Of a stretch of 64,000 nt of DNA, positions 1-41,600 are shown in pieces (the stretch's first letter is position 1; each line of letters opens with the position of its first letter). The position numbers and the translations under genes were made by a program. The notes beneath the pieces were generated by a model, which was not told the DNA's origin, made no database searches, and saw only the letters and a program-made list of their open reading frames with translations. The stretch spans positions 62,001 through 126,000 of the forward strand of contig CANTFL010000167.1 in NCBI GenBank assembly GCA_947650285.1, given 5' to 3'. The DNA comes from Hyaloperonospora brassicae. Its lineage: Eukaryota > Oomycota > Peronosporomycetes > Peronosporales > Peronosporaceae.

Positions 1-1473
1 GCGTGCGCACGATGACCCTGATGTAGAGGTCATCTACTCTGGCGAGTCAGACGTGTCTGACTCGGGCAATGCTCCAGAGGCGTCTCGCTCACCGGCGACG
101 ACTCAGTATTCGCCAAGACCACTGCCGAACGAACGGACTCGTGATTTGCATCACAGTCTGTTCGGCAGTGATGACGATGATCAGGGTGGTGAGTTCTATT
201 CTTCACCACCGCCGGCTCGTGCGTCTTCGCACGAGCGTGATGACGATGGCGCGAGCCGTCGTCAATCTGGGAGCCGTGGTACCGACAAGGGTACCACTGT
301 GAAGCGTGATGAGTTGAAGCCGTGGCGTTTGCCCGAACAGCTCATCAATAGCCTGTCTCACGAGACAGGCCAACACTATCTATTCCCCTTTTCGATGCAA
401 GCGAGCTTCACGGCTTGAGTTCCAGCGCGAAGAACTTTCGCGCTGAAGAAGATATTTATCTCGATGTCTTTCTTAGACATCGATGGTACAACGGCAACCA
501 AAAGCGTGACAAAACATCGCTTTTGGCTGCGTGGAACGCGTTCATCCAAAACGTAAAGAATTTTGGACGAGAAGGGTGGCTAAAGAAACTTGAGGCGACA
601 CGCCTCAGGTTCGAACGGCGAACGCCAACCGGTGCTAGGTACCGGTTGCATTGTTTATCTAGTGAGGCAGGCATTCCTTGCCTCACATGGGGAGACCCTT
701 GTGCGAGTTGTGTTGACAACTCGCAGCGTGCACATAGGAATGTGTATTCCCTAGATTCACCCTGGGGAAGGGCACACATCTCGGCTGAGATGCGTGACGC
801 GATTGCAAACTTGCAATCCGTCTACAAGCTCCTAGGGCGCGTGTTTACCGATGGGCCACAGGACTCATCGGATGGGTCTCGTCATACTGGCGGACGAGAC
901 CTTCAACATCCATCAACAGCTGAGAGCGGGGCTCCCAGCTGTTCCAAATGGGTGGATACCCCCGCCACTGGACGAGGTAGCTCGTCCTTGATCCTGAATC
1001 GTCACGGTGATTCAAGATACGCTCCACTAGAAAGCGTTGATCACCGTGAGCATCCACCAAAGGATGTGGTGGAGGAGGAAAGACCTCCTCCAGATGATTC
1101 GGTTCACCATCTCGACCCTTACGAGATGGATCGCGCAATCGATGAATTGCGCGATGACTTGAAGCACGAGCGCGACCGGCGCTACGCTTTGACCGATACC
1201 GTGCGGAAGAACCGCAAGGGTCACGAGGCTGATCGGGCGAGGGATCGCGCCGATTATGCCACAGCGCAGCTCCAGGTCGAGCGGGATGTCCGCTCCCTAC
1301 TCGGCGAGCTGGCGACAGCTCGCGGAGAGATCTCTCGTTTGAGTTCTGAGGTCTCTCATCTACGCGACCAGACGGATCGTCTGAAGCGCGAACGCAAGAA
1401 CCTGATGGAGGTTCATAAGCGTGGGGGCTATCTTCATCGGAAGAAGAAGGCTTGTACTGACAGTACGACCTGA
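1..1473 (+). pseudogene. Antisense ORF of gypsy copy A, coiled-coil protein, one frameshift, 5' end outside window
   Basis: A long plus-strand reading, opposite to gag-pol, at the 3' end of the element. Frame one is open from the window edge to the stop at 416-418 (acidic, Ser-rich; DPDVEVIYSGE near the start, LHHSLFGSDDD at about 150-180). Frame two is open from before 415 to 1473. Copy B has homologous protein on the same relative strand: DPDLEVVYLGE, then LRHELFGSSEE, then IPLF..S..HGL.SSAK and YIDVFFRHQWYHGN. B shows that A changed frame near 375-395. The C-terminal 110 residues (about 1120-1450) are a highly charged predicted coiled coil. Function unknown. It overlaps the chromodomain ORF by 629 bp tail to tail. 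Antisense ORFs next to the 3' LTR are known in plant gypsy elements such as Grande and RIRE2. Confidence 0.7.
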
Positions 1474-2077
1474 GCCTCCCCACGTAAAACGTAGGATGCG
1501 TGCGCATCCTACGTGGAAATTCGAGTGTGTATGCATTGCCCTTTCGATGCAACACTCGAAATGGCCCAATGTATTTCGGCAGTAGTTTACTACTGCCGAC
1601 ACTAGTGACTGCATGTCCAGGTAAGTTTACCGTTGACAGTAGTACTAGGTCGTTAACCTTAAATGAAAGAACATTTGCTCTTCCATTCTTGTCTGCGTTC
1701 CGTTTCTGACGGTCCACCGCATTTGCGGTGGAGTCCTGAACGAAACGGACTACCGCTTCTCGAGTCAGCAGGAAGTTCTCTGCTGACTCTTTGTTTTGTT
1801 TGGCAGTGCGCTTCGTGCGCACTGCTAAGAGGTTCTTCTCTTCTTCAGCGAGGTTGTCTTCTTCCTCGCTGACATAATCGTTGGCGATGCTGAATATACC
1901 AGCATCGTCATCATAATCCGAATCAATAATAGCGTCGTCGCTATTATTGAGATGATCTTCTTCATCGATGTCGACTTGATCGACATCGGCATCATACGTG
2001 ACGACGTTTGCGTCGACACGTGATGAGCAAGAGCCAAAACGATTTTTGCTCGAGCGAGTCCCTCCCCCCTTATCCAA
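845..2077 (-). CDS. Pol C-terminus of copy A: integrase C-terminal domain and chromodomain
   Basis: A 410-codon ORF that continues integrase after the frameshift near 2070. An acidic Asp/Glu stretch (about residues 25-85) precedes the integrase C-terminal SH3-like segment with a GPFRV box and then VGRLR (about 120-205), a basic Ser/Arg/Pro linker, and a chromodomain at about 348-400 ([10 protein letters not shown] ... YLVQWRGYP ... SWEP). Chromodomains of such elements bind histone marks and steer insertion. Residues beyond about 200 lie opposite the plus-strand antisense ORF, so 845-1473 is open on both strands. Family homology makes the chromodomain reading the more certain of the two. Confidence 0.85.
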
Positions 2078-2949
2078 GAGTCACACTCTATAAGGGTGGG
2101 CACTCGTGGATGGCGTAGGCCATTCACGTAAAACGATGTGTGCTGTGTGGAAGCATGCACCGAATTATTGATGGCGAATTCCACCATGGGTAGGAATTCG
2201 CTCCAACTCGGAAACGAGTGGACATATCCTCGAAGGATCTCTTCGAGGACACGGTTCGCGCGTTCCGTCTGACCATCTGTTTCTGGATGGTCAGAAGTGG
2301 ACATCTTCAATCGTGTTCCGAGAGTACGGAACACGGTTTGCCAAAATGCCGCCGTGAATTGAGGGCCACGGTCGGATACGAGTTCACGGGGTAACCCGTG
2401 GAGTCTAAAGACCGTGTCGAGGAAGACACGAGCACAACCTTGAGCCTTGATCGACTCAGGGACTGCAGAAAGATGGACCATCTTGCTGAATCGGTCAACA
2501 AACACAAGAATACCATTATTCTTGTGAGCGTCTTCGGGGAAACCGAAGACGAAGTCCATTGAAACGGACTGCCAGCACTCTGTCGGAACAGGCAGAGGCT
2601 GCAATGGCGCACGGGATGAAGGACTAGGCTTTACCCGTTGACAAACTTCGCAAGCACGTATGTACTTGCGAACAAACTGATACTGGCGGGGCCAGTAAAA
2701 GTCGCGACTTACCGTGAGGTAAGTCTTTTCCTTACCACGATGGCCGCTTGTTGGGGCATCGTGACACTCATACATGATGCGCAAACGCAAATCATGATGA
2801 GCGGGTACGACGACACGAGGCGTGTCGTCGGCAACAGCTGTATAGTACAGCAATCCGTTGCGTTTACTATACCGATCCGATGAGGATCGGTACAAAGCCG
2901 GTAAATCCCTCATGGATTTACTGGATGGATTCACCAGATGATCCATCAA
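1825..2949 (-). pseudogene. Pol integrase segment of copy A
   Basis: The frame is open from about 3112; the listed start is only the first start-like codon. The H2C2 zinc-binding N-terminus (HDAPTSGHRG ... CEVCQ) is followed by the catalytic core with D in SVSMDFVFGF, D in LVSDRGPQFT and E in DGQTERANR, so the D,D-35-E set is complete. It would insert the cDNA into the genome. The reading leaves frame near 2070 at a run of C (plus strand), after which the low-complexity tail up to 1825 is out of frame and the true C-terminus continues in the ORF at 845-2077. Confidence 0.85.
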
Positions 2950-3049
2950 TCGCAGAAGATCCTTATCTTCCGCGTATGCCTTTCGTACGTCGTCAAGTAA
3001 ACTTGACGACGGGACACTGACTGACAGTGTCGCAACAGTGGGCTTATCC

Positions 3050-3805
3050 TCACTGTTGGACTGTGCGTCCGGCTCGAAATCGGGCCGGCGCGAAAGAGCA
3101 TCCGCGACGACTTGAGTCGTCCCGGTTTATACTCCACGGAGAAGTTATATTCCGCGAAGAAAGACAGCCACCTCGCCTTCTTTGCGAGAGGTGTGGGCTG
3201 TTTACGGCCGTGCGTAATGACGCATGGTCCGTGTAGACAACAAACGGTCTATCTCCCAAGAGATAGACGCGAAACTTAGCCAGTGCGTATTTTATGGCAA
3301 GGAGTTCCTTGTCATGCACTGGGTAACTACGCTCAGCTGCTTGCAGCTGACGCGACTGAAAACAGATGACGCGCTCCGCGCCATCTGCATCGAACTGCAT
3401 TAACGCACAGCCGATTGCAAAATCGCTGGCGTCACAGACCTCATGAAATGGTCTGTCCTGATCTGCAATCGCCAAGATCGGCGATTGCATCAAGATCCGC
3501 TTGATACCTTCAAAGGAACGCTGGCACTCAGCGTTCCATGACCACTTGACATTTTTCTTGAGGGGACAAGAAAGATGAACAGTCATCTCGGCGTAGTTGC
3601 GCGAGTACTTGTGCAAGTACGCCGCAAGCCCAAGGAACTTCCTTATTCCCTTGACATCGACTGGCACTGGCCAGTCGGTGATCGCCTTGATCTTTTCGGG
3701 ATCAGGGCGTACGCCGTGTTTACCCACGATGCACCCAAGAAGTGGTATTTCGCTAGCCGCGAATATACACTTCTTGAAGTTGGCGTACAACTTATGCTTG
3801 CGCAT
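3050..3805 (-). pseudogene. Pol RNase H segment of copy A, frameshifted at its 3' end
   Basis: This continues pol in the same frame after the TAA at 3809. It carries the RT connection and a Ty3-type RNase H with its catalytic set in place: D in VCDASDF, E in DKELLAI and D in YTDHASL. Comparison with copy B shows the reading leaves frame after HLSQR, where A lacks one base near 3180. A second one-base loss near 3113 is needed to rejoin the integrase frame. The last 45 or so residues of this ORF are therefore out of frame. Both losses are single-base events and could be old mutations or assembly indels. Confidence 0.8.
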
Positions 3806-3808
3806 AAG

Positions 3809-5686
3809 TTAAAAAATCTGACGCAAGTGTGTACTGTGAACTTCCGTGTCCGTCTTTCCGTTCATAGCCCGGCTATGGACGAACACATCGTCGAAGTAAC
3901 TCGGTGCGAAGTCTCGCACCGGTCTCACTAGATTTGTAACACATCTGTTGAATGTTGCAGGGGCATTACTCAGCCCCTGTGGCATCACTAGCCACTCCCA
4001 CAGCATACCGCTGGGGGTACTCACTGCCGTGAACGGGACGTCCCGTTCACGCATCAGGATCTGATAGAATCCATCCATCAGATCCATGGACGAAAAGATG
4101 GTACTCTTTGACATACCATCTATGATTACGTCCTTCCTCGGTATCGGCGTCTGAGCCGGTACCGTTGCAGCATTCAACTTGTTGAATGCGTGCACTATCC
4201 GCCACCCTCCTGTGGCCTTTCGCACACAGAAGGTCGGAGAGCTGTGAGGGGATGTTGATTCCCTCACATGGCCCGCTGCTAAGCGATCGGCAAAGAACTT
4301 GTCGATCGCTAGTATTTGTTCACGAGGCAGTGGCCACTGCTTCATGACACAGTATTTCGAGCCCGGTTTGAGCTCGATCTCGTGTCGAGTGCCTTTGTCC
4401 TTAGGCAACTCGCAAGGTACGGATTCAGGGAACACATCCCTGAATTCGATCAAATCCTTATACAAAGGATTTGCCTGAAGTGACTCCCAGGATTGGGACG
4501 CGTATCGCTCAACCCGAGTCTTCTCATCGAGGACACTTTCGTCCATCGACGAGCTACTGATAACCCGTTCGCTCTCAGTAAACAGTGTTGCCGACCGAAT
4601 ATCGGCCACATACTCGTCCCCTGTGACGAGTATGCAGATCTGCTTGACTTTGCCACTACGCAGATCACGCAAGAACCGTTTCGGTTCTAGCGTTGGCAAC
4701 TGAGTTATCTCCGAAGTTAACTTCGGAGGCACAATCAGATCAAGCGTATAAGCGCCTACGCTTGATCCGTCATCAACCAAGACGTTCAACGTCTCGGTTT
4801 CTTCCTGGGAACTTGCTTCCACAGGTTGCTGAGGGCCTAATCCCTCAGCAAGCGACTCTTGAGGAATTCCTTCCTCAAGTACGTGGGGACTTATTCCCTC
4901 GACGTCTTCCGACTGTGGCTGTGCAACCACAGTCAGGCACCGATCCTCTACGGTCGACTCTCCAGTCGACCTAGGATTTTCATGTTGCCCCTTGGGGGCA
5001 ACAGGTTTATTTCTTCTAAGATGCTGCCCGCTAGGCATGCATCCATGTCCCGGTCCACTCGACTTCTTCGAGTGGTGGACCTTCGGCGCAGCCTGTACTT
5101 GTGTACAGCCGCCGGGAGCTTGCCCCACAGTGTAGTGATCAACTACACTGTGATCTCGTGCAGTCGTGCTAACGACCGTACCGCAAGTGAGGCCATCGCA
5201 CTCACTCGCAGAACATCCACACGCTTGTGGACGCTCCAAGATGTTCATCAGATGGCCATCTGGTGAACAAGCAGCAGGCATCTTCACGGATCGATGCTGC
5301 CAGCTCACCCTTGGCTCGTACTTTCTGAGCCAAGGTAATCCCAGGATGACATCAAATTTGTCATCCAGATCTAGTACGATGAAGTCATCATCGTACTGTT
5401 CGCCCTCTAACGTGTAGTGGATTTCTACTACACGTTTCTCAACGGTTATCGATGCGCCTGTTGCAAGGCGCACCGTCATCCTTGTGAGGGGAATGTCGCG
5501 CTCAACGAACTTGAGCCTACGACCCTCTAGTGACTGGCGTCGAACAAAGTTGTTCGACGCCCCACAGTCTACTAGGGCACGAAGCGACAAGTCATTTGTC
5601 GCTTCCAACTTCAAGGTGATGAGCGAAACATCATCACCAGGTGCAGAGACACACAATGATTGTGTATCTGGAGCAACTTTCGTCAA
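3809..5686 (-). CDS. pol: Pol N-terminal part of copy A: aspartic protease and reverse transcriptase
   Basis: A 625-codon ORF. An aspartic protease active site of the form D-C-G-A (LVDCGASNNF, about residues 36-45) is followed by a beta-rich retropepsin fold and a long Gln/Ser/Glu-rich linker. The reverse transcriptase domain covers the last 200 residues, with WRIVHAFNKLNA, LMDGFYQI and the catalytic box YFDD at 3887-3898. The ORF ends at an in-frame TAA (3809-3811) exactly at the RT/RNase H boundary; the RNase H reading continues in the same frame 3 bp later. The same TAA is present in copy B, so the stop predates both insertions. Whether it is a lethal mutation or a recoded stop is open. 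Confidence 0.88.
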   Translation of the reverse strand: MTKVAPDTQSLCVSAPGDDVSLITLKLEATNDLSLRALVDCGASNNFVRRQSLEGRRLKFVERDIPLTRMTVRLATGASITVEKRVVEIHYTLEGEQYDDDFIVLDLDDKFDVILGLPWLRKYEPRVSWQHRSVKMPAACSPDGHLMNILERPQACGCSASECDGLTCGTVVSTTARDHSVVDHYTVGQAPGGCTQVQAAPKVHHSKKSSGPGHGCMPSGQHLRRNKPVAPKGQHENPRSTGESTVEDRCLTVVAQPQSEDVEGISPHVLEEGIPQESLAEGLGPQQPVEASSQEETETLNVLVDDGSSVGAYTLDLIVPPKLTSEITQLPTLEPKRFLRDLRSGKVKQICILVTGDEYVADIRSATLFTESERVISSSSMDESVLDEKTRVERYASQSWESLQANPLYKDLIEFRDVFPESVPCELPKDKGTRHEIELKPGSKYCVMKQWPLPREQILAIDKFFADRLAAGHVRESTSPHSSPTFCVRKATGGWRIVHAFNKLNAATVPAQTPIPRKDVIIDGMSKSTIFSSMDLMDGFYQILMRERDVPFTAVSTPSGMLWEWLVMPQGLSNAPATFNRCVTNLVRPVRDFAPSYFDDVFVHSRAMNGKTDTEVHSTHLRQIF

Positions 5687-5736
5687 GAGGTTTGCAAATT
5701 CTCTTGAGGTTGCTGGATCAGTAGGGCGCTCCGCCC

Positions 5737-6891
5737 CTACTGACCCCGACCATTTTTTGATGGCCCGTCTCGCTGTTGCGGCTTCGCAACAGCGCTGGAC
5801 CCACGCCCATTGCCCTTTCTGGCGAATGGTCGTCCATTTCGCTCAGTACTGTTTGGTACTGGGCGTGGAGCACTACACTCGTATGCGTAGTGCCCTAACT
5901 TCTGACAGCGATTGCACCTCTGCAATTGCTTGTTGTTTGAAGAGCGAGGTCTCTCGCTCTCAACATAGCAGAGATCCATTGGTTCTGGACCTCCGATCTC
6001 TTGTCGTCTCGGTGGACGGTAAGAGTTTGAGCTAGCATGAGCCTGTCTCATGCTTAAGTCTTCCTGTTCCGCGGCTGATATCGCTTCTTCAAGCGTATTC
6101 AGCTCAAGGCGGAACAGATGGCTCCTGACGGGCCCTTCTGCGAGCCCTTGCATGAACACCGTAATCAACGTGTGTTCATGAACTGGGTTAGCAGTTATAC
6201 TACTCGCAAGGAGTCGTATATGTTGTGCGTAAGCGTGCACATCACGCTTACCCTGCTTGAGTTTCAGGAGCTCTGAAAGAGCCCTATACTCAGCACGTGG
6301 CGGCTCAAACGTTTGTCTGAGCCGGGACTTGAAGTCATCTAGCGACCTAAACACGTTTGGGTCGCTACTCTCGAGTCCCAGGGACCAAGGTTTGGCACGC
6401 CCTGCCAAGTGGGTCTGAGCAAATGTGAGTTTCATTTGCTCATCTTTGACGCGACGAGCCCTTAGGGCTCTGTCGAGTTCGACAAACCATAGTAACAGGG
6501 AGTCATCCGGGACTCCACTGTACTTGGAGATGTCAACTTTCATGACTTCGGGACGACGCGCATGCGCCGTCCCGCCCACAGCAGCATGGAATTGCTGCTG
6601 TCTCAACAGCTCCGTCTGTTGAGCACCGAGTTCTCTCAACTGCTCGGTCTGTTGAGAGCCTTGCTGGTGAAGCAAGTCTACTTTCTCCCTCTCGAGAGCA
6701 AGTTCATTCTGAATGAACTTGGCAATAGCGGCATGTTGTTGGTCTCTGTCTAGAGACTCCAACATGGTGCTAACGACGAGTTCGCCTACGGTAGAACTCA
6801 TTCGTTCTACCGCACCCCATTCGATGTCACTCAAATGGGTAAACCCTTCACGCGTGGCGTGAAAGGTGTCTTCTTCATCCAACATGTTCAT
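5737..6891 (-). CDS. gag: Gag polyprotein of copy A (capsid and zinc knuckle)
   Basis: A 384-residue structural protein that would form the cytoplasmic virus-like particle and package element RNA. A glutamine-rich, probably helical N-terminal third (about residues 60-100, repeated QQxxQLRELGAQQTELLRQQQ-like heptads) precedes a retrotransposon gag domain (about 115-265). A single CX2CX4HX4C knuckle (CNRCQKLGHYAYEC) lies near residues 329-342, followed by a basic Arg/Gly/Lys-rich tail. The ORF is intact. Its ATG (6889-6891) sits inside a 10-bp hairpin at 6876-6899. The start matches copy B, where the same MNM start follows the primer site. Pol begins about 50 bp downstream in another frame, so gag-pol would need a frameshift or reinitiation. 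Confidence 0.9.
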   Translation of the reverse strand: MNMLDEEDTFHATREGFTHLSDIEWGAVERMSSTVGELVVSTMLESLDRDQQHAAIAKFIQNELALEREKVDLLHQQGSQQTEQLRELGAQQTELLRQQQFHAAVGGTAHARRPEVMKVDISKYSGVPDDSLLLWFVELDRALRARRVKDEQMKLTFAQTHLAGRAKPWSLGLESSDPNVFRSLDDFKSRLRQTFEPPRAEYRALSELLKLKQGKRDVHAYAQHIRLLASSITANPVHEHTLITVFMQGLAEGPVRSHLFRLELNTLEEAISAAEQEDLSMRQAHASSNSYRPPRRQEIGGPEPMDLCYVESERPRSSNNKQLQRCNRCQKLGHYAYECSAPRPVPNSTERNGRPFARKGNGRGSSAVAKPQQRDGPSKNGRGQ

Positions 6892-6915
6892 GTTGGATGA
6901 TGTGGTCCTTGGAAG

Positions 6916-6933
6916 GACTACAAAGTGCTACCA
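6916..6933 (-). other. Candidate primer-binding site of copy A
   Basis: Two bases inside the 5' LTR, the minus strand reads TGGTAGCACTTTGTAGTC, starting with the TGG expected opposite a tRNA 3' CCA. The same site with one difference follows the 5' LTR of copy B (13027-13044). I cannot say which tRNA pairs with it without the genome's tRNA set. Confidence 0.6.
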
Positions 6934-6935
6934 GG

Positions 6936-7326
6936 TGTAACGGGGCACACCCTTGCGTAACTTAACGCAAGGGATTTGGGTGCCCCGACGGACGTACACG
7001 CGGCGAGCGAGGAAGCGTAGGTAGGGTAAAAGTAGAACTGTTATATTAATAAAATTAAGTCTTTAAACTACTGTCTCTTCGTTTGACTTAATTCAATTAT
7101 ACTAATATAACTGCATGTATGGTGACGTCTCGTCACCACTCATTGCGCGCGTCTTGCGGCGATTGGTGGGTTGATATCATCACGATATCAACCAATGAAC
7201 AGACCCTTTGGTCGACCCTTCAATATCACCGCTTTGGTGATATTGTTTAAAGAAAATCCATCTTTATATTCTTTATTGTCACTTTCCTTAAAGTGACAAT
7301 TTCATGTAACGGGCTGCCCCGTTACA
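6936..7326 (-). repeat. 5' LTR of gypsy copy A
   Basis: A 391-bp LTR bounded by TG...CA. Its ends are the inverted 10-mers TGTAACGGGG and CCCCGTTACA, the same termini as the LTRs of copy B. It abuts a primer-binding site at 6916-6933. It is itself built of hairpins, for example at 7275-7300 and around 7220-7245. The matching 3' LTR would lie left of the window, so insertion age and target duplication cannot be read. Confidence 0.85.
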
Positions 7327-8494
7327 TCGGGTACGATGGTATTGATCTACTGTATACATGAACGACAATTCCTACTTCCGTATCCACGTTGTGCTTGCAG
7401 TGGTCTTTGCCTCACCAGAACGCGGCTGAAACTTCATCGTGAGAAAAATGTACACTTTGGTCCTGCGTGTGATGGTCAGCGGCGTTTCTACTTAGCTGGA
7501 GACGGTACGTTCGTGTGGAAATGGAGCCGTTTCCTCCACTAAAGCTTAGCTGCTCTTCGTCTCCGTGATGGAAGTAGATGCGGGTTTGTCATCGGTATCC
7601 ACTTGCTCGACGTTGGCCTCCTGTACCTCAACAGCGCCCTCCAATGTAGCGCCAACGTTCGTCTTCTCCTTCTCTACAACCGTCATAGACTCAGCAACGG
7701 CTTCCGTTTGCGCAGTAAGCGTCACAGCTATAGCCTCTCTAGCAGCGTCAGACGCATCGGCAGAGACAGCCGTCTCGCCAAATGCAGCGGCTTCGGCGCA
7801 GGTCAGTACCCGTCTCGCCAAATGCAGCGAATTCGGCAAGCTCAATTGAGTCAGTACCCGTCTCGGTCTCGACCTTGTATATAAGATTTTGAAGGAAGGG
7901 TGTGAATTTAAGGAAAAGGGGTGTGAATTTAGCAATTCCCTAAAAGTATTACCTACTAGCGTGATTTATATTAGTAGTATCTGCTTAAGATAATTTTGGA
8001 TGCCACTTATTTGGGCACTTTTTTCGTTGACGTACAAATCACAACCAGGTAAATCGGGTCACCCCGTGACATCCGTGCTACGGCTTGGGCATTGAGATGT
8101 GACACACCCTCTGCTCGATGATTGAATTACTATACAGCTACCACATTAAGTTCATTGCCTAATGTTACGCGGTTATCAGATTGCGAGCGTTGACTCTTTA
8201 CTTGTGTGCCTAGCGCGTACGACTCCGGCGCAGCACAAGCTAATACTTTTCGTCGAATTTTCTTAACAAAAAGTCAAGTAAAAAGTTAAGGAAAACCACC
8301 ATAGTTTATGTGTTTGGAGCAAAAAGGTTGTGGTTAGTCAAAGTATAATCAGCATTACTTCTACGAAGCTACAAAAGTGATCACTATATAGCTGCCAGCT
8401 TCACTGACTTTGCTCCCACGGGCTGCTAGAGAACTTGGGCGTGCGCTGCATTCAGCTCGTCGTCCAGATAGTCAACCGCTTGCTCCGACCACGC
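7327..8494. other. Intergenic, no firm gene
   Basis: Between the LTR of copy A and the effector gene. A minus-strand ORF at 7546-7935 (129 codons) has an Ala/Glu/Thr-rich second half that could be the C-terminus of a broken gene, but no family is recognisable. It contains local duplications: an 18-base motif repeats at 7771 and 7811, and a 15-base motif at 7803 and 7851. The 3' side (7940-8490) is AT-rich and shows nothing I can name. Confidence 0.5.
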
Positions 8495-12558: not shown

Positions 12559-13024
12559 GCTAACGGGGGGCCCGTTACATAATTTTGATACGAATGTATC
12601 AATTTTTGGGCATTATTTATTTAGATAATACTCAATCAACATCACTTGAGAAGAGGTGATGTTGGCGAAATTTTACCTCTGAGAGTAATATTCTCGGGTG
12701 CTCCACATTTGTTAATGTGGTTACATCAGCCTGATTAGCTACCAATCGCTGCTGGACGCGCGCAATGGGTGGGGATCAAAAACCCACACACAAGATTGTA
12801 GTTTAGTATAGTTAGCTCAAGATAAAGACAGCTTATTAGGAAGTCTTAACTATACTAAATACAGTTCTACTTTTCCCTCAAGACAGAACTTTCGGGTTCT
12901 GTGTTGTCTTGGTCTCACTTTCTCACGCCACGTGTACGTGACGTCGGGCGTACGCGCCCTTGGATTGTTATCAATACAAGGAAGGTCTTGCTCAGTTGGC
13001 TGAGCAAGAGCGTGCCCCGTTACA
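12559..13024 (+). repeat. 5' LTR of gypsy copy B
   Basis: 466 bp, the same sequence family as 34366-34833. The first two bases have changed from TG to GC; the end is CCCCGTTACA. It has the family's hairpins, for example a 9-bp stem around 12990-13012, and is followed two bases later by the primer-binding site. Confidence 0.85.
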
Positions 13025-13072
13025 CCTGGTAGCACTTCGTAGTCCTTCCAGCGACCACCTATCTTATTAATC

Positions 13073-14112
13073 ATGAACATGATGGATGAGGGAGAGATCT
13101 TTCACGTCACACGTGAAGGCTTCTGCCATTTAAGTGACCTCGAATGGGCCGCGGTAGGGCGAATGAGCTCTACCGTGGGCGACATTGACGTTACCGCTAT
13201 GTTGGAATCTCTTGACAGAGACTAACAACATGCCGCTATCGCCAGGTTCATTCAATATGAACTTGGCGCCGAACAAGTGAGAGTAGCCTTGCTTCACCAG
13301 ATGGGATCTCAACAGGCCGAGCATTTGAGAGAACTCGGTGCTCACCAGACACGGCTTTTGAGGCAGCAGCAATTTAATGCTGCTGTGTGCGGGACGACGC
13401 ACACGTGTCGCCCCGAATCTCGAAGGTTGACATCTATAAGTACAGAGGAGTCGAGAAAGACTCCCTGTTGTTATGGTTCGTCGAACAAGACAGAGCCATA
13501 AATGCATGTCGCATCGACTATGAGCAATTTAAACTAACATTTGCTTAAATTTGATTGGCAGGACGTGCCAAGACTTGGGTTTTAGGCCTGGGGATGAGCT
13601 ACCCATACGCTTTTGAGTCGCTCAAATCCTTTAAAACCTGGCTCAAACGTTCGTTTGAGCCGCCAAGGGTTGAGTTCAGGGCTCGATCAGAGCTCCTGAA
13701 ACTCAAGCAAGGTAAGCGTGATGTGCACGCTTACGCTCAGCATATACGACTCCTTGCGAGTAGTGTAACTGCAAATTCGGTCCGCGAACACACATTGATT
13801 ACTGTGTTCATGCAGAGCTCGCAGACGGGCCCGTCAGGGGTCACCTGTTCCGCCTAGAGTTGAATACTCTAAGAGATGCTATTTTAGCAGCGAAATAGGA
13901 AGACTTTAGCATGAGCTTGTCTCATGCTAGCTCGAGCTCTTATCGTCCACCGAGACTACAAGAAACCGGAGGTCCAGAACCAATGGAACTCTATTATGTT
14001 GAGAGCGAGAGATCTCGTTCTTTGAACAACAAGAGATTGAATAGGTGCAATCGCTGCCAGAAGTTCGGACACTACGCTTACGAGTGTAGTGCCGCTCGCC
14101 CAGTACCTTACA
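13073..14112 (+). pseudogene. Gag of copy B, decayed and truncated by a solo LTR
   Basis: Homologous to the gag of copy A: the same MNM start, TREGF and HLSDLEW near the N-terminus, the glutamine-rich helix, the RDVHAYAQHIRLLAS capsid segment and the zinc knuckle CNRCQKFGHYAYEC near 14047-14088. There is an in-frame TAA after SLDRD (near 13223) and more frame changes follow. Coding stops at 14112, where the solo LTR begins. Confidence 0.85.
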
Positions 14113-16027
14113 GTGTGGTAAAGTCGCTGATTAATTTCGGGATGCGGATCGGTGACCACCCAGTTGAGACGCCGCTAACTGGCAGAAAACGACACCGGAT
14201 GATCTAGCGATCCAATGGGCGATGGAAGGCGATCCCAACATGACTCAACGAGCCGATTCAACTATCGACAGAATGATGGACATGGATCGATTTGAGACGA
14301 GGCGTAGAAAGAGATGGTTTTCATGGAAAAATCTGGGAAGAGTCGCAGGTATAGATGATTTCTATGGGGCGATCTGGGACAAAGGAAGTGATGAAGTCAA
14401 GCGATCCGCTTGAAGGTTGGTCAAGGACAAGAATGTGTGTTGAAGCAGGTGAAGACTGAGTACTGTGGCAGAATTACTCTGGGAAAGGTGTCCATGGGAC
14501 CAGGTGATGCGATGTGACTCTGTAACTAAGGTGCAACATCTTGCAGATCGGTGATACTCTTTACCGGTCCCACAATGGGAGTACTGATTTTGTTCAATTA
14601 CAGCCCGATCTGGAAGTGTGAACACTTATAAGATTCCAGGGATCTATTTCAAGACGCGTGGATGGTCCCACTGATCAGATAAATCTTGAAGGATGGTATT
14701 GGAGCACACACGATGAACGGGAGAATGTCTGCTGTCAATTTATACGGTGTCAATCCCTATTTATCTCGGATTGGGCATCAGATCGGTCTTGTTCCCTGTT
14801 GATCATGGATATATCACTGATGGAGCTTTCGGGTCATGATGAATATGCTTGCTGAAGGTCCATGAGTGATGTCTCAAAAGTTCAGACCGAAAGAGCCAGT
14901 GGAAGCTGTCGAATTGACTTCGCAAAATGGATTTAGACACATTTGGTATTTGAGTACTATTTAGTGCTCTCCGGTACCAAAAATGGGAATTGGGTACCGA
15001 ATTTGGGATTTGGTTCTCATTTGGTGTTTAGGTACGATATCGGGGATACCGGCTCTATCTTTGGAGTACAGGTCATGAAATTTCGACACGTGTTCGAGGG
15101 GGCGGTCAAGCTTAAAGGTGATATCGGTTTGCAGAGTGAACAAAGGTTTGGAATAGGCATAAGGATAGGTCGGCTATTAATTTGGTTGGTTAATAAACAG
15201 ACTTGAACTCTACTTCTTCTAAACGCGACGCGCTTTCTCCCCTCTTTTCCGGGCAAGATTGGTTTGGCTTCCCCGGTGGTGTAAGGCACGCGTGTTGGAA
15301 GAACACAGAAGACCTATCTTGGATTGTTATTAAGATCAGGAAGAGCGATCCCGGACAATCTGGTCCGGATCGATCAAGTACTCACACTCAACTCAACTGC
15401 TAGGGTAGCAGCAACAACGGAAAAGGACTGGATACAAGATCGCGAGACGGCTCAAGTGGTTAGAAGATCTGGACAAGGAGTTCAAGACAAGACCGAGCAA
15501 GATCGAGGCGATCTACAGGGCAGATTGTCACATTTCACTTTGGCGAAACAAGAAACCTATCTGGACCACATTGCGCAATTCCAGCACGATAGACCGATTC
15601 CAAGGCCGGATCGGACCGATCCCAAGGCAAGATCAACGCAAGACTATTATTTGCTGAGTGAAGATGTCCGCAAAGCAAAGACCCCGACTTCGAGGATAAA
15701 TCGAGATCGGTGTGATTTAAGATCGAGATCGCGACGCTTCCAGATAGAGATCGCCGCGACTTAATATGAAGATCGCAGAACCCCTATTCGTGGTGTGAAG
15801 ATTTCCGAACCAAGAGCTAACCCTCAACCCCAAACCCTCAGCGAGATCGACATTTCCCAAGGCCGTTACGAAGAGCTCATGCCAGCCTAACTGACGGGTA
15901 CACAAGATGAGCACATGGTTATACAGCAAGGCACGGATCGGAGTACCCCCGTTTGTGAGTCGGAAAGTCTGGGCAAGTGGAAGATCGACCCTCACACAAG
16001 CGATTTTGTGAGTACTACTTCACCACA
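14113..16027 (+). repeat. Solo LTR of the chromodomain family of copy D, in copy B
   Basis: A 1915-bp LTR, TGTGGTAAAG ... CTTCACCACA, clearly the same family as the LTRs of copy D read in the sense direction but well diverged. No internal element sequence is attached. Copy B resumes after it in the region corresponding to copy A position about 5220, whereas gag stops at about copy A 5860. So about 640 bp holding the gag-pol junction and the protease active site is missing. Flanks (TACAG and ACTGT) are not a direct duplication, so deletion or recombination accompanied its formation. Confidence 0.82.
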
Positions 16028-19000
16028 ACTGTGAGTGAGTGCGGTGGTCTCACTTGCAGGACAGTCGTTAGTACGACTGCACAAGACCTCAGTGTAGCTA
16101 TTCATTACACTGTTGAGCAAGCTACCGTTAGCTGTACAGAAGTACAGGCGGCGCCGAAGGTCCGCCATTTGAAAAAGTCGAGTGGACCGGGACATGGATG
16201 AATTCCTAGTGGGCATCATCCTAGAAAGAAAAAGAGGGTGCCCAGAAATGGCAACACGGTAATCCTATGTCGAATGGAGAGTCGATCGTAAAGGATCAAG
16301 ACCTGACTGTGGTTGCACAGCCACAGTCAGAAGACATAGAGAGGATAAGTCCCCACGTACTTGAGGAAGTAATTACTCAAGAGTCACCTGCTGAGGGATT
16401 ATGCTCTCAGAAACCTGTGGAAATAAGCTCACAGAAAAAAATTGAGACGTTGAACGTCTTGGTTGATGACGGATCAAGCGTAGGCGCTTATACGCTTGAT
16501 CTGATTGTGCCTCCGAAGTTAACTTCGGAGATAACTCAGTTGCCAACGCTAGAACCGAAACGGTTGTTGCGCGATCTGCGTAGTGGCAACGTCAAGCAGA
16601 TCTGCATACTCGTTACATAGGATGATTATGTGGCCGATATTCGGTCGGCAACACTGTTTACTGAGAGCGAACGGGTTATCAGTAGCTCGTCGATGGAAGA
16701 AGGTGTACTCGATAAGAAGACTCGGATTCAGAGATACACGTCTCAATCCTGGGAGTCACTCCAGGCAAATCCTTTGTAAAAGGATTTACTCGAATTTAAG
16801 GATGTATTCCCATAATTCTTACCCTGCAAGTTGCCTAAGGATAAGGGCACTCGACACGAGATCGAGCTCAAACCGGGCTCGAAGCATTGTGTAATGAAGC
16901 AGGTTCCGCCTCGTGAACAAGAACTAGCTATCGACAAGTTCTATGCCGATCGCTTTGCAGAGGGTCATGTGATGGAATCTGCATCCCCTCACAGCTCTCC
17001 AACCTTCTCCGTGCGTAAGAATCAGGGGGTTGGTGGATAGTGCACACATTCAATAAGTTAGATGCTGCGATGGTACCGGCTCAGACGACGATACCGAGAA
17101 AGGACGTAATCATAGTTGGTGTATCTATAAGTACCATCTTCTCGTCCATGGATCTGATGGATGGATTCTATCAGATCCTCATGCGTCAACGGGACATTCC
17201 TTACACAGCAGTGAGAACCCCCAGCGGTATGCTGTGGGAGTGGCTAGTGATGCCACAGGGGTTGAGTAACGCCCCTGCAACGTTCAACAGATGTGTCACA
17301 AATCGGTTGAGACCGATGTGAGATCTTGCACCGAGTTACTTCGACGGTGTGTTCATCCATAGCCGGGCTATGGACGGAAAGACGGACACGGAAGTTCACA
17401 GTACACACTTGCGTCAGATTTTTTAACTTATGCGCAAGCATAAGTTGTACGCCAACTTCAAGAAGTGTATATTCGCGGCTAGCGAAATATCACTTCTTGG
17501 GTGCATCGTGTATAAACACGGCGTACGCCTTGACCCCGAAAAGATCAAGGCGATCACCGACTGGCCAGTGCCAGTCGATGTCAAGGGACTAAGGAAGTTC
17601 CTTGGGCTCGCGGCGTACTTGCATAAGTACTCGCGCAACTATGCCGAGATTACTGAGCATCTTTCTTGTGAACTCACGAAAAATGTGAAGTGATCATGGA
17701 ACGCTGACTGTTAGCGTTCCTTCGAAGGTATTAAGCAGAGCTTGATGCAATCGCCCGTATTGTCAATTGCAGATCAGGACAGAACATTTCATGTAATCTG
17801 TGACGCCAGAGATTTTGCAATCGGCTGTGCGTTGATGCAGTATGACACAGACGGTGCAGAGCGCGTCGTCTGTTATCAGTCGCGTCAGCTGCAAGCAGCT
17901 GAGCGTAGTTACCCAGTGCATGACAAGGAACTCTTTGACATGAAGTACGCACTGGCTAATTTTGCGTCCATCTCTTGGGAGATGGGCCGTTTGTTGTCTA
18001 TACAGACCATGCGTCACTACGCACGGCCATAAATAGTTCACACTTCGCGCAAAGAATGGCGAGGTTGCTATCTTTCGTCACGGAGATAAACTTCTCCGTC
18101 GATTAAAAACCAGTTAGAATGAACGTCGTCGCTGATGCGCTTTCATCCTGATCCGATTTAAAGCCGGGTGCGCACTTCAACAGTGAGGAGCCCACCGTTG
18201 CGACACTTGCAGTCAGTGTCCCGTAGTCCCCACTCAAAACAATTTAAGCTTGCGCATCATGTATGAGTGTCACGATGCTTCAACAGGCGGGCATCGTGGC
18301 AGGGTTAAGACTTACCTTACGGTAAGTCGTGATTTTTACTGGTCCCGCCAGTATCCGTTTGTGCGCAAGTACAGTCGTGCATGCGAGATTTGTCAACGGG
18401 AGAAACCTAGTCCTTCTTCCCGTGCACCATTACAGCCTCTACCAGTTTCGAGAGAGTGCTGGCAGTACGTTACATGGACTTCGTCTTCGGGTTTCCCGAA
18501 GATGCTCACAAGAATAATGGGATTCTTATCTTTGTTAAGTGTTCAGCAAGATAGTTCACCTCGCTGTAGTTCCAGAGTCGAACATGGCTCAGGGCTGGGC
18601 TCGTGTCTTTCTCGACACTATATTTCGACTTCACGGGTTACCCCGTGAACTCTTATCCTACCGTGATCCTCGGTTCACGGCGGGCTTTTTGCAATCCGTG
18701 TTCCGCACTTTAAGAACCCGGTTGAAGATGTCGACTTCTGATCAATTTGAAACAGATGGTCAGACAGAACGCGCGAATTTTGGCCTCAAAGAATCCCTTT
18801 GAGGCTATTTCCACTCGTTCTCGACTTTGAGCAAATTCCTCCCGATGGTGGAATTTACCATTAATAACTCGGTACAAACTTCAACACAGCATTAAACGTT
18901 CTTCCTGAATGGCTTAAGCCATCCACGTCTTCCCTCCCTTTTTAGAGTGTGACGCTTGGAAAGGGGGGACTCGCTAGAGCAAAAACCGTTCTGGATCTTG

Positions 19001-20170
19001 CTCATCACATGTCGACTCTAACGTCGTCACGTATGACGCCGTTATAGACCAAGTCGACATCGAAGAAGAAGACCATCTTAATAACATTGATGACGCTAAT
19101 ATTGAGTCAGATAATGATGGTGATGCTGGTATTTTCAGCATCTCCAATGACTACTCCAGCGAGGATCATGACACCTTCGCTGATGAACAAAAAGAGATAA
19201 AGGCTTCTTCTGCAGTTCGCACGAGGCGAACTGGTCAAACAACATCTCGTTAGCAGAAGGATTTCTGCTATACAGAGAAGCTGCGGTCCGCTTCGTTCAG
19301 GATACCGTCGCTCATGCGGTGGACCGGCAGAAACGGAACGCTGACAAGAATGGAAGAGCAAATGTTCTTTCATTTATTGTAGGTGATTTAGTTCTAATTT
19401 CTACGGTAAATCTACCTGTACATGTAGTAAATAACGTGGGAAGCAGTAAACTACTGCCTAAGTACATCGGCTCCTTTCGTGTGCTGCGCCGACAAGGCAA
19501 CGAACACACGATCGAGCTGCAACGTAGGATGCGCACGCATCCTATGATTTACGTGGGGCGTCTCCGCCCGTACTGCCAGTATACGCCCTCTTCCGACGAT
19601 GAAGATAACCCCCGCGTTCAAGAACCTCCATCAGGTACTTGCGTTTACGCTCCAGGCGATCAGTCTCGACGCGCAGTGAAGAGACCTCTCCATGCAATTA
19701 AAAGAGCCCCCCTGTGAGCTGTCGCCAGCTCTCTAACCAGAAAACTGGAAATCCGTTCAACCTGGAGCTATACGAGGACATAATCAGCACGGTCTTTTGA
19801 ACGTTCAGTTTCTCGATCCTTGAGGTGCTTCCGCACAAGATCGGTTAGAGCGTAGTGTCGGTCCCCCTCGTGCTCCACATCTTCGCTCAATGCAGAGATT
19901 GCGCGATCCATCTCGTATGGGTCGAGACGGTGAGTCGAACGACTCGGAGGAGGGTTTTCCTCCTCCCCACATCCTTTGCTTGACTCACACGGTGGTCAAC
20001 GCTTCCTTGTGGAGCGTATCTTGAACCACCGTGACGATTCAGAATCAAGGACGAGTAACCTCGTCGAGTGGCAAAGGTATACACTCTCGTAAGACAGCTG
20101 GGAGCCCCGCTATCAGTGGATAATGGATGTCCCCGGTCTCGTCGAATAGTACGACGAGACGCACCCGTTG
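16028..20170 (+). pseudogene. Pol of copy B (RT, RNase H, integrase, chromodomain), dead
   Basis: Homologous block by block to pol of copy A. The RT catalytic box is YFDG instead of YFDD (17337-17348), a loss of a catalytic aspartate. The RT/RNase H boundary has the same TAA as copy A, just before MRKHKLYANF (17430). RNase H (VICDARDFAIGCAL) and integrase (YECHDASTGGHRG ... CEICQ, near 18250-18420; DGQTERANF near 18760) are interrupted by several stops. The chromodomain ([13 protein letters not shown]) is at 20000-20150. Many shared hairpins persist, for example 16472-16501. Confidence 0.88.
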
Positions 20171-21165
20171 ATGATGGAAGGCCATCGTCGAACGAACGCC
20201 GGGCGCGTTCGTAAAGGGATTGCTAAGTCTCAATTACTTTTGCATCTCAGACGAGATGCTATCCCTTCAATACAGCTGATTAGGGAGGAAGGCCTCCCTA
20301 GGGGCGCGAACAGAGTTGTTTACACAACTCTGACATTTTTCTTCCCACGAGAGGCAAGGTAGTCCTGCTTCTCGAGACAATCGGTGCAATTTGAATCGTG
20401 CACCATTTAAAGATTTCTGTTAATAAAATTGTTGCGAGCTGAAGTAAGTTTGTCCAGCCAAGTTTCACGGCCAACATTCTCAATGTTGCCGATAAAAAAT
20501 TTACGCCTGAGCCAGCGAGAACTCCTCTCGGTTGTGGTTGCCGTGGTACCATTGATGTCTGAAAAAGACATCGATGTAAAACTCATGTTCAGTGCAATAA
20601 TGCTTCGCACTGGAGTCAAGACCATGGATCCATGACGAGTTAAAGAGTGGGATGCGACAACCTCCAGTGGTATAGCCATACCACTCTCTCAACTCGCTCA
20701 AGGCTGGCATCCATGGTTTATGCTCAGGGCGGATCGTAATGCGTTACGATCCTGCTCCTCTTGCGTGGTTCCAAAATAATAAATGGCACCACGGTCGTCA
20801 CAATATCTGTTATTGAAACGACTATGACTACGATGACTTCGTGAAGAGCGATCGACATCTTAATGAGGAATCACAAACGACCTCATGTTTTGCACTCGCC
20901 TCGCACGAATACGAGCGCGATCCGATCAATCCCGGCGACGAGTCTTAAACTCTTCGGATGAACCGAACAATTCATGCCGCAATTTAGGATCGAGACGGCC
21001 GCGAGTTTCGGCAGTCATCGATCCTGCACACACAGCCTCACGGCCGGACTTCGATGGTGACTTCAAGTCGGACGAAGAGTCCGGCTCGCCTAAATAGACA
21101 ACCTCCAAATCGGGATCGACGTCCATGAGGCTATCACCCACAGCAGAAGCTGGGGGTGAAGAAGC
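19720..21165 (-). pseudogene. Antisense ORF of copy B, C-terminal and middle part
   Basis: Minus-strand reading opposite to gag-pol. From the copy C junction leftwards it reads SSPPASAVGDSLMDVDPDLEVV-like acidic sequence (20926-21165), LRHELFGSSEE, then HKPWMPALSELREW and YIDVFFRHQWYHGN (20501-20710) and a diverged tail (19887-20084). Each block has a counterpart in the antisense ORF of copy A in the same order, so this is a conserved protein and not a chance reading. Frame changes and stops show it is dead here. The piece at 34051-34234 is its N-terminus, separated by copy C. Confidence 0.7.
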
Positions 21166-22101
21166 TGTGGTGGAGCGGGGTTCACAAAATTGCTGATGTG
21201 ATCCCGCCTCTCCACTGGTGCCCAGACGACCGACTATCGGAGGGGTACTCCTTTTTCGTGCTTGATTCATTCCTCACCTTGTGTACCCGTCGACAGGGCG
21301 GGTTGCACTCTTCTCGGTGGACTCGTGTCGATGCGTAGCTTGACCGTGGTTGGGGATGGGGTGATCGCGTGGAAATCCTCACTTGATCACTGGTTACTTG
21401 GGGTACTCGATATGAGATACCCGGACCTCGTTGAGATAGCCCTTTCCAAATGCAGATCTTGATCTGTTTGACCTCCTGACCACTTGAGCCGCATCGCGAT
21501 CTTGATCCCCTTTGCGTTCTTGCTGCTTCCTATCGCAGTTGACTTGTTGTATGTGAGAGTCCTTGTATGCACCTGGCCAAACAATACAGGCGCGACACTT
21601 GGGTGGACGGAGCGTGGTTCTTGATCGTCGGGAGACCAAAGATCCTGCCCGGAAGAAGCGGCGCGTGTCTTTTGAAGTAAATTTAACTCTGTTTAATGAT
21701 AGCCAACCATTCTGCTAAACCTACGATATAGCATATTGATACAGGAGGTACTTGCCATGTGTCGCCAGTCAAGCACCTCTGTCTCTTGCACACCGCTGGT
21801 CCCTTGGTTTATCCCCTACCCCTGAATTAAATCTGGATCCTGTATCCCAATCTTGATCCGGATCCACCTTGGCTAGGATTCCAATCCCGGATCCTTCGAT
21901 CGTGGTCCTTGATCCTCTCTTGATCCGGATTCTGGATCCACTCCCAACTGAATCACCTCTCAAATTGGATTCCTTCTCAGACCGGATCCTGTAATGGGTC
22001 AGGTCCGGCAGTTGTGATCCACCTATCCAATTCGTCCTTGATCGGGGTCTATTAATTGTCCTTCTAAGCCACTTATTCATTCTATGGTTCGCTTCTCTAC
22101 A
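21166..22101 (-). repeat. 3' LTR of copy C
   Basis: 936 bp, TGTGGTGGAG ... CTCTACA on the plus strand. It is rich in GGATCC/GATC: the 115 bp around 21832-21945 hold eight GATC sites. It pairs with 33115-34050. Confidence 0.9.
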
Positions 22102-22174
22102 ATCATCCCCTGTACCGTTAGCTGGCAGGCATCGTTAGTCTGACTGTACACTCAGTCCGTAGCTTATCAGCATC

Positions 22175-24710: not shown

Positions 24711-24940
24711 TATTCAATACAAATTCCGTGTTTATTCCACAATATTATTATATAACTGACTTCCTTTTAAGGCCTTTCGGCCGCAATCCGGCGTTCGATG
24801 TGCCTTGATCGTCACACTCATCCGACATAAATTCTTCCATCATCTCTATGCATCCACCCTTCACATGTTAACATCTCTTCCATCATCTCTATGCAGCCAT
24901 CCTGCACAGGTCCACCCTCCCTTAAACAAACATAAGACTG

Positions 24941-33114: not shown

Positions 33115-34050
33115 TGTGGTGGAGCGGGGTTCACAAAATTGCTGATGTGATCCCGCCTCTCCACTGGTGCCCAGACGACCGACTATCGGAGGGGTACTCC
33201 TTTTTCGTGCTTGATTCATTCCTCACCTTGTGTACCCGTCGACAGGGCGGGTTGCACTCTTCTCGGTGGACTCGTGTCGATGCGTAGCTTGACCGTGGTT
33301 GGGGATGGGGTGATCGCGTGGAAATCCTCACTTGATCACTGGTTACTTGGGGTACTCGATATGAGATACCCGGACCTCGTTGAGATAGCCCTTTCCAAAT
33401 GCAGATCTTGATCTGTTTGACCTCCTGACCACTTGAGCCGCATCGCGATCTTGATCCCCTTTGCGTTCTTGCTGCTTCCTATCGCAGTTGACTTGTTGTA
33501 TGTGAGAGTCCTTGTATGCACCTGGCCAAACAATACAGGCGCGACACTTGGGTGGACGGAGCGTGGTTCTTGATCGTCGGGAGACCAAAGATCCTGCCCG
33601 GAAGAAGCGGCGCGTGTCTTTTGAAGTAAATTGAACTCTGTTTAATGATAGCCAACCATTCTGCTAAACCTACGATATAGCATATTGATACAGGAGGTAC
33701 TTGCCATGTGTCGCCAGTCAAGCACCTCTGTCTCTTGCACACCGCTGGTCACTTGGTTTATCCCCTACCCCTGAATTAAATCTGGATCCTGTATCCCAAT
33801 CTTGATCCGGATCCACCTTGGCTAGGATTCCAATCCCGGATCCTTCGATCGTGGTCCTTGATCCTCTCTTGATCCGGATTCTGGATCCACTCCCAACTGG
33901 ATCACCTCTCAAATTGGATTCCTTCTCAGACCGGATCCTGTAATGGGTCAGGTCCGGCAGTTTTGTTCCACCTATCCAATTCGTCCTTGATCGGGGTCTA
34001 TTAATTGTCCTTCTAAGCCTTTTATTCATTCTCTGCTTCGCTTCTCCACA
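33115..34050 (-). repeat. 5' LTR of copy C
   Basis: 936 bp, about 99% identical to 21166-22101; most of the differences lie in the last 60 bp. The gag ATG (33112-33114) begins directly at its inner edge. Confidence 0.9.
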
Positions 34051-41512: not shown

Positions 41513-41600
41513 ACCGCCCCCTGCACTGAAGTCCATTGTACAGCAATTGACCTCAGTGCAGTCACTCATCAACTTTGCTCCAACCACTTAAGTCCATCTC

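What the first reader, a model, noticed from the sequence alone, without database searches (positions are those of the whole stretch)
1..7326. A gypsy family whose entire sequence is built from short perfect hairpins
Seen: short inverted repeats with 7-12 bp arms and small loops succeed one another across antisense ORF, pol, gag and LTR. In 361-817 I count at least ten perfect stems of 7 bp or more with loops of 11 or fewer; random sequence would give roughly 0.3. The longest checked is 12 bp (1923-1950). Some nest: near 107-174 an outer stem encloses an inner one, and near 6066-6118 two stems sit one inside the other. The gag start codon lies in a 10-bp hairpin. Copy B has the same pattern, with hairpins at homologous places and some loop differences (461-483 versus the 20550-20575 region). 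Copies C and D and the host genes lack it. Inference: either selection for a fully structured genomic RNA (packaging, RNAi escape, template-switch control), or a mutation process, such as template switching in reverse transcription, that turns imperfect palindromes into perfect ones. I know of no description of this.
Basis: seen in the sequence. Interest (0 to 1): 0.92.

Follow-up and report, generated by a model that had tools for sequence, protein, structure and literature searches.

The report
Retrotransposon packed with selected hairpins
A jumping element of a downy mildew carries a short perfect hairpin about every 60-70 letters, genes included, and evolution keeps these hairpins far better than chance would, as if the element needs its RNA to be folded everywhere.

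Summary
Ty3/gypsy element A has 108 perfect local hairpins (arm 7+, loop 3-12) in 7,328 bases against 3.5-4 in dinucleotide shuffles; each of five ORFs has 7-28 against 0.55-1.55 in synonymous shuffles. Folding-energy excess (MFED) is 44% in A and 53% in a young copy, against 1.0-4.5% for gypsy elements C and D, two host genes and a flank; a published virus survey records at most 23.4%. Across 50 copies plus A, stem interiors carry 0.019 shared variants per column against 0.106 outside stems; single-copy variants are only mildly depleted, 0.141 against 0.212. A copy 6.4% diverged keeps 72 of 82 stems; neutral expectation is 48%. Stems are thus protected while the element replicates. A second gypsy family, about 60% identical in Pol, is hairpin-rich at other positions, more weakly folded (MFED 10.5%). 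Best reading: selection for pervasive local RNA folding, like GORS of RNA viruses; ten literature searches showed no retrotransposon case. Template-switch conversion lacks its expected signatures but is not excluded; wobble-pair evidence for RNA-level selection is weak; shielding from silencing is inferred.

The parts
1..7328 (-). Element A, Ty3/gypsy, the part inside the window (about 650 more bases with the other LTR lie to the left, L009:9347-10000); 108 perfect hairpins
6934..7328 (-). LTR of A (395 bp), 6 hairpins; the other LTR (L009:9347-9741, 98.99% identical) also has 6
5737..6891 (-). gag ORF (383 aa): Retrotrans_gag, Ty3_capsid, zinc knuckle (the last below its curated cut-off); 16 hairpins
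3809..5686 (-). protease and reverse transcriptase ORF; 28 hairpins
3050..3805 (-). RNase H ORF; 7 hairpins
1825..2949 (-). integrase ORF (H2C2 and rve); 17 hairpins
415..1473 (+). antisense ORF (352 aa), conserved in other downy mildews; 16 hairpins, registers 9:6:1 in its own frame
1923..1950 (.). longest perfect stem of A: 12 bp, loop 4
6875..6900 (.). 11-bp hairpin, loop 4, that holds the gag start codon
461..483 (.). 9-bp hairpin, loop 5; counterpart in B at 20554-20572 with another loop
7304..7327 (.). 10-bp hairpin, loop 4, at the end of the LTR
13004..14114 (+). B, gag-side stretch aligned with A (80.9% identical)
16029..20614 (+). B, pol-side stretches aligned with A (87.5% and 75.7%); about half of A's hairpin density
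12571..13024 (+). left LTR of B (92.3% identical to 34380-34833, 454 bp): an older insertion
34380..34833 (+). right LTR of B, beyond the nested element C
21166..34050 (-). element C (LTRs 936 bp, 98.9%), gypsy-like, nested in B; no hairpin excess (control)
39650..54300 (-). element D (LTRs 1817 bp, 99.3%), gypsy with a chromodomain; no hairpin excess (control)

Best explanation
While it replicates, the family is under selection to keep its single-stranded genome folded all along into short stable hairpins, mostly of 8-10 bp, and it reaches this chiefly through choices that its proteins tolerate. Shown: the hairpin excess; its presence in the copies examined; conservation of stems in replicating lineages and decay in old copies; compensatory changes; stem lengths that peak at 8-10 and stop at 12 in A (one 13 found in another copy). 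Inferred: that the folded molecule is the genomic RNA rather than cDNA, and that the benefit is shielding: compact RNA with few open stretches for small RNAs, RNA-dependent RNA polymerase or nucleases, in stems too short for Dicer. [quoted passage not shown]
For: Excess over dinucleotide and synonymous shuffles in every ORF. 36 of 36 windows below z -2. MFED 44% in A, 53% in L010, 24% in B. Stem/non-stem ratio of variants falls from 0.71 (one copy) to 0.41 (2-4 copies) to 0.33 (5+ copies), the same frequency pattern that PMC7642675 reports for SARS-CoV-2 (passages). Shared variants: 29 of 333 end columns, 10 of 333 next, 15 of 790 interior, 379 of 3591 outside stems. Retention 72 of 82 in L022 vs 0.48 neutral, 24 of 80 in B vs 0.11. 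L022 keeps 16.0 hairpins/kb at 7.5% divergence from A. Compensated pairs: 7 of 622 in L022, 17 of 656 in B. Registers 34:27:7 vs 71:125:65 in synonymous shuffles, p 5e-5. Interior shared variants G-T 13, A-C 5, other 7 vs single-copy 41:49:69, p 0.05-0.07. Second family with its own hairpins.
Against: One-mismatch stems of A show no wobble preference (G-T 13, A-C 15, other 13). Predicted G-U pairs are equally rare on both strands (6.0 and 6.2%). Comparisons of A, L010 and L022 give G-T:A-C of 1:2, 7:7, 5:9, 9:6, 8:11 and 5:6. With L022 as stem reference the interior shared variants are only 11:7:15. L022 stems seen in A or L010 have 4 and 3 compensated pairs but also 3 and 3 other double changes. 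Gaps between stems are random, so coverage is not evenly optimised. No RNA, probing or small-RNA data were available. The second family folds much less strongly (MFED 10.5%, 2 of 6 windows below z -2).
Confidence: 0.6

Rival explanations
1. Template-switch conversion: in reverse transcription or replication one arm of an imperfect palindrome is copied from the other, so that stems become and stay perfect without any benefit to the element.
For: Stems are Watson-Crick perfect with few G-U pairs and strand-symmetric defects. Such conversion is argued for RNA genes (PMC8794818, abstract and Discussion) and considered for nematomorph mitochondrial palindromes (PMC6649704, Discussion). One-armed multi-change stems are slightly above expectation: 16 of 35 vs 12.1, 17 of 37 vs 13.4, 12 of 22 vs 7.8, three overlapping comparisons with B. 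Gain of pairs by shared variants 30 of 100 vs 77 of 366 in slid registers.
Against: 54 shared stem variants uncompensated, 4 compensated. Gain of pairs by single-copy variants is close to control (54 of 169 vs 171 of 627). One-armed excess is small, and absent for stems of B (0 of 6, 0 of 3, 0 of 2). 41 one-mismatch stems persist in A where shuffles give 2.9. Stems stop at 12 instead of growing. Young elements C and D of the same host lack the trait.
Confidence: 0.18
2. Selection acts on single-stranded DNA, or on both strands (cDNA, or sense and antisense RNA alike), rather than on the sense RNA alone.
For: Sense and antisense strands fold equally well (z -6.4 and -6.2; MFED 44.3 and 45.5%). 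G-T and A-C defects in A are equal. An antisense ORF conserved in other downy mildews implies an antisense transcript at least at 415-1473.
Against: Perfect stems fold alike on both strands whatever the cause, so the energies do not discriminate. Interior shared variants lean to G-T (13:5, 11:4, 11:7). Loops lean to A over T on the sense strand in 4 of 4 sequences (p 0.05-0.26).
Confidence: 0.13
3. The hairpins are distributed binding sites for Gag or another element protein (packaging, dimerisation, priming).
For: Genomic RNA structure has packaging and dimerisation roles in Ty1 and Ty3 (abstracts of PMC5454406 and of PMC11381356).
Against: No loop motif: among tetraloops only one sequence occurs twice; all 108 arms differ. 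Positions differ between the two families (2 of 15 shared, 0.8 expected).
Confidence: 0.08
4. Chance, base composition, a repeated motif or an assembly error.
For: None found.
Against: Dinucleotide and synonymous shuffles; copies in many contigs show it; all arms distinct.
Confidence: 0.01

Closest known systems
[quoted passage not shown] abstract of PMC3950689)
   Same: Folding excess throughout the genome, coding parts included; many sequential local stem-loops; duplexes kept short (14 or less in that paper, 12-13 here); variants at paired sites purged in proportion to their frequency; positions not shared between distant relatives.
   Different: An LTR retrotransposon, not a positive-strand RNA virus. 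MFED 44-53% against 15% for SARS-CoV-2 and a record of 23.4% in that paper (shuffling methods differ). Stems are mostly perfect and few-G-U, and within the family keep their positions (63 of 78 in L022, 29 of 40 in B).
Coding palindromes of nematomorph mitochondrial genes (PMC6649704: abstract, Discussion and first part of Results)
   Same: Perfect inverted repeats inside protein-coding genes with function kept; the same avoidance of the register that ties codon positions 1 and 2.
   Different: There 110 repeats of 15-142 bp in four genomes, nearly all perfect and often species-specific; here 7-12 bp, about 15 per kb, with an excess of one-mismatch stems.
Template-switch mutations that create and maintain RNA hairpins (PMC8794818: abstract and Discussion)
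   Same: Perfect stems and compensatory changes as outcome.
   Different: Its footprints (multi-base compensatory changes from one arm) are not clearly present here. In A, 5' arms hold G above C and A above T; that paper reports G-C and U-A as the favoured pairs.
Ty3 genomic RNA structure in yeast (abstract of PMC11381356)
   Same: A Ty3/gypsy genomic RNA with a well-folded core.
   Different: The abstract describes a core and cis-acting structures; I did not compute MFED for Ty3, so the difference in degree is not measured here.

Membership tests
Ty3/gypsy LTR retrotransposon | Gag, protease, RT, RNase H, integrase in this order | tested here: met
   Pfam matches on successive minus-strand ORFs, integrase last
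Ty3/gypsy LTR retrotransposon | Long terminal repeats | tested here: met
   395 bp, 98.99% identical
Ty3/gypsy LTR retrotransposon | Primer-binding site, polypurine tract, target-site duplication | not tested
   not looked for
GORS | Folding-energy excess over composition-matched shuffles along the whole genome | tested here: met
   36 of 36 windows z below -2; MFED 44.3%
GORS | Variation restricted at paired sites, more so for common variants | tested here: met
   stem/non-stem 0.71, 0.41, 0.33
GORS | Short interrupted duplexes | tested here: met
   perfect stems at most 12 bp in A; one 13-bp stem (L052) in the loci held other than L009
GORS | Pairings not conserved between relatives | tested here: inconclusive
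   between families 2 of 15 shared; within the family 63 of 78 and 29 of 40 shared
GORS | Genome of a positive-strand RNA virus | tested here: not met
   LTR retrotransposon; hence 'works like', not 'is'
GORS | Compact RNA, inaccessible to probes | not testable with these tools
   needs RNA
Template-switch conversion | Mismatches resolved, so that compensated pairs outnumber lasting mismatches | tested here: not met
   4 compensated, 54 not, among shared stem variants
Template-switch conversion | Several changes on one arm at once | tested here: inconclusive
   16 of 35 vs 12.1 expected
Template-switch conversion | New variants make pairs | tested here: inconclusive
   singles 54 of 169 vs 171 of 627; shared 30 of 100 vs 77 of 366

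The most novel reading that the evidence does not exclude
A clade of oomycete Ty3/gypsy elements has evolved, in at least two families and at different sequence positions, a genome folded into perfect mini-hairpins along its length as armour against RNA silencing: folded enough to hide the RNA, each stem too short to be diced, with a genome-wide folding excess about twice the highest recorded in the virus survey that I could read.
Probability: 0.28. Interest if true: 0.93.

Novelty: new variant of a known kind. Interest (0 to 1): 0.86.

Why it matters
It would show that large-scale RNA folding, known from persistent RNA viruses, also evolves in retrotransposons and to a higher degree. The many genomic copies preserve both the replicating lineage and its neutral decay, so that the open question of what such folding is selected for becomes testable: stems lost after insertion can be told from stems lost in replication. 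It also asks how a reverse transcriptase and ribosomes cope with such a template, and whether silencing in downy mildews is the driver.

Tried and rejected
Even spacing of hairpins (a sign of coverage optimisation): rejected, gaps look random (CV 0.97 vs 0.99). Common loop motif: not seen. Conversion beside stems: weak at best. Erosion of Pol by stems: not seen; residues fully in stems are as conserved as others or more (0.953 vs 0.895, 0.792 vs 0.748, 0.498 vs 0.500 in three identity bands). A strict both-strand reading from all stem pairs (9 G-T, 8 A-C among variants in 5+ copies) was softened after separating stem ends, which hold 29 of the 54 shared variants. Relatives in viral contigs (two scans) and genome contigs (one scan): none, so other species could not be compared at DNA level. 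Copy numbers are lower bounds, since only the best candidates are scored: 40 of 2214, 40 of 1982, 150 of 3528, 49 of 7077. The Pol search lists 120 of 537 homologues, and the conservation test used those 120. Rows left out of the copy set: L001, L013, L042 (A itself), L009 (flank), L012 (B again, represented by the window stretch); the rest fall into 50 family copies plus B. Columns covered by fewer than 15 sequences were left out. One search printed 23 comparisons (divergence above 2%, plus two young copies), not all copies.
Full report
What is there. Window 1-7328 is the larger part of a Ty3/gypsy element on the minus strand. Its LTRs are 395 bp and 98.99% identical, the left one just outside the window at L009:9347-9741. 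Gag, protease-RT, RNase H and integrase domains are found by Pfam, and an antisense ORF lies at 415-1473. The genome has 100.56 Mb in 898 contigs. The 150 scored of 3528 candidate places match a 182-residue piece of its protease-RT ORF at 96-100% amino-acid identity, A itself included. A's own pol frame is interrupted; other copies have longer open frames. The host is an oomycete: its NatB subunit is 82% identical to that of Hyaloperonospora arabidopsidis and 80% to Peronospora matthiolae, and the antisense-ORF protein is 93% identical over 64% of its length to a Hyaloperonospora brassicae prediction. I infer a Hyaloperonospora-like downy mildew.

A has 108 perfect hairpins (arm 7+, loop 3-12) where dinucleotide shuffles give 3.5-4; each of five ORFs exceeds its synonymous-shuffle mean by a factor of about 11 to 23; C, D and host stretches are at shuffle level. 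In 36 of 36 windows of 200 nt A folds below z = -2, mean -6.4; the antisense strand likewise, mean -6.2; B -3.3 to -3.6; C -0.2, D -0.6, two host genes -0.1 and -0.2. As MFED in 350-nt windows: A 44.3% (20 windows), L010, a young copy, strand as stored, 52.8% (19), B 24.4% (13), C 2.1% (17), D 4.5% (19), genes 1.0 and 2.7% (8 and 7), flank 2.5% (13). PMC7642675 gives about 15% for SARS-CoV-2, 7.5-10.7% for HCV and 23.4% for the highest vertebrate RNA virus on record (passages). My shuffles keep dinucleotides, 15 per window, and are not that paper's procedure, so the comparison is approximate.

Anatomy of the stems. Loops peak at 4 and 5. The counts of arm length 7 to 12 in A are 20, 30, 30, 21, 6, 1; chance extension of 7-bp stems would fall fourfold at each step. 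One 13-bp stem was found in the other loci held (L052). All 108 arms differ. Hairpins cover 35% of A. One-mismatch stems number 41 against 2.9 in shuffles. Codon registers in the four minus-strand ORFs are 34, 27 and 7, the rare one tying codon positions 1 and 2 to each other; synonymous shuffles give 71:125:65, p = 5e-5. The same avoidance is reported for nematomorph mitochondrial palindromes (PMC6649704). In the antisense ORF the registers in its own frame are 9:6:1.

Evolution. I compared 50 copies projected on A, plus B. Copies less than 3% from A carry 15-17 hairpins/kb (A itself 14.7); density relative to A falls with divergence (r = -0.78). With L010 as reference, variants found in one copy are mildly rarer in stems (0.151 vs 0.212 per column), those in 2-4 copies more so (0.021 vs 0.051), those in 5+ copies most (0.0165 vs 0.0504; loops 0.074). 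Shared variants sit at stem ends (29 of 333 columns), less at the next pair (10 of 333) and least inside (15 of 790), against 379 of 3591 outside stems; end versus interior p = 5e-7. Single-copy variants in stem interiors are also depleted, 111 of 790 against 0.212 per column, but far less. So most mutation after insertion is tolerated, while variants that pass through replication are purged from stem interiors. Against a neutral calculation, L022 keeps 72 of 82 stems at 6.4% divergence (0.88 vs 0.48) and B 24 of 80 at 16.9% (0.30 vs 0.11); 23 of 23 printed comparisons lie above expectation. Compensated Watson-Crick pairs: A stems in L022 7 of 622 pairs with no other double change; A stems in B 17 of 656 with 9 other double changes; L022 stems in A and in L010 4 and 3, with 3 and 3 other double changes.

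Selection or conversion? Conversion should resolve mismatches, pile up compensated pairs and lengthen stems. Shared stem variants are 54 uncompensated and 4 compensated; single-copy ones 220 and 16. Gain of pairs beside stems is 54 of 169 single and 30 of 100 shared variants, against 171 of 627 and 77 of 366 in slid registers. One-armed multi-change stems are 16 of 35 vs 12.1 expected. I therefore prefer selection; a contribution of conversion is not excluded.

RNA or DNA? The evidence is mixed. Against a sense-RNA reading: one-mismatch stems in A have G-T 13, A-C 15, other 13; predicted G-U pairs are 6.0% and 6.2% on the two strands, half the shuffled level; comparisons among A, L010 and L022 show no G-T excess. 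For it: once stem ends are set aside, shared variants are G-T 13, A-C 5, other 7, while single-copy ones are 41:49:69 (Fisher p = 0.069; binomial against rates outside stems p = 0.050); with A as stem reference 11:4:7, with L022 11:7:15. B seen from A stems has G-T 39, A-C 26. Loops lean to A over T on the sense strand in 4 of 4 sequences, p 0.05-0.26.

Not one family only. A second gypsy family of the same genome (open frame of 1795 codons in the copy read; 58% identical to L010 and 60% to A over the main aligned Pol part) has 16 hairpins in 2,196 bases against 1.3 in shuffles, with MFED 10.5% and 2 of 6 windows below z -2 (L072). Only 2 of 15 mapped hairpin centres coincide with those of L010, 0.8 expected; its registers are 7:7:2. 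L073, 701 bases of a degenerate place matched by the same search, has 6 hairpins. C and D, 25-36% identical to A or L072 in Pol pieces, lack the trait. So the trait belongs to part of the gypsy elements here, and the hairpins of the two families arose or moved independently. This rests on one 2.2-kb and one 0.7-kb stretch.

Function. Shielding is inference. Small RNAs of 21 and 25/26 nt from LTR retrotransposons, and sense and antisense small RNAs along two gypsy families, are reported for Phytophthora infestans (passages of PMC3522703). Structured viral transcripts are poorly sensed in mammalian cells (abstract of PMC3950689). In maize, miRNA-like structure in TEs goes with more small RNAs, that is, a cost (abstract of PMC10760457); stems kept at 12 bp or less might avoid it. 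That Dicer needs longer duplexes is from general knowledge, not from a call.

Novelty. Ten searches of the open PMC library listed no paper on a retrotransposon with such genome-wide hairpins. I saw listings for all and parts of seven papers; subscription papers and preprints are not covered.

Noticed in passing
window 415-1473 (+): The antisense ORF belongs to a protein family present in large numbers in Peronospora matthiolae predictions; three matches in Hyaloperonospora arabidopsidis are named 'RxLR effector candidate protein' (P0205, P0235, P0301). Those names may be retroelement ORFs mistaken for effectors.
   Followed up: partly
L072 (G000:C786:8646-10841) and L073 (G000:C268:98000-98700): A second gypsy family with its own hairpin excess at other positions.
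   Followed up: partly
window 21166-34050: Element C (LTRs 936 bp, 98.9%) is nested in element B.
   Followed up: no
window 14573-15750 and 38487-39634: A non-coding-looking repeat in two copies, 71-91% identical, one inside B's span and one left of D, with 20-22-base tandem units.
   Followed up: no
window 34893-35669 (-): ORF with a retroviral-polymerase SH3-like domain (PF25597), probably a remnant of another retroelement.
   Followed up: no
window 50335-50448: Two near-identical 55-base tandem units (98% matches) beside the start of D's main ORF.
   Followed up: no
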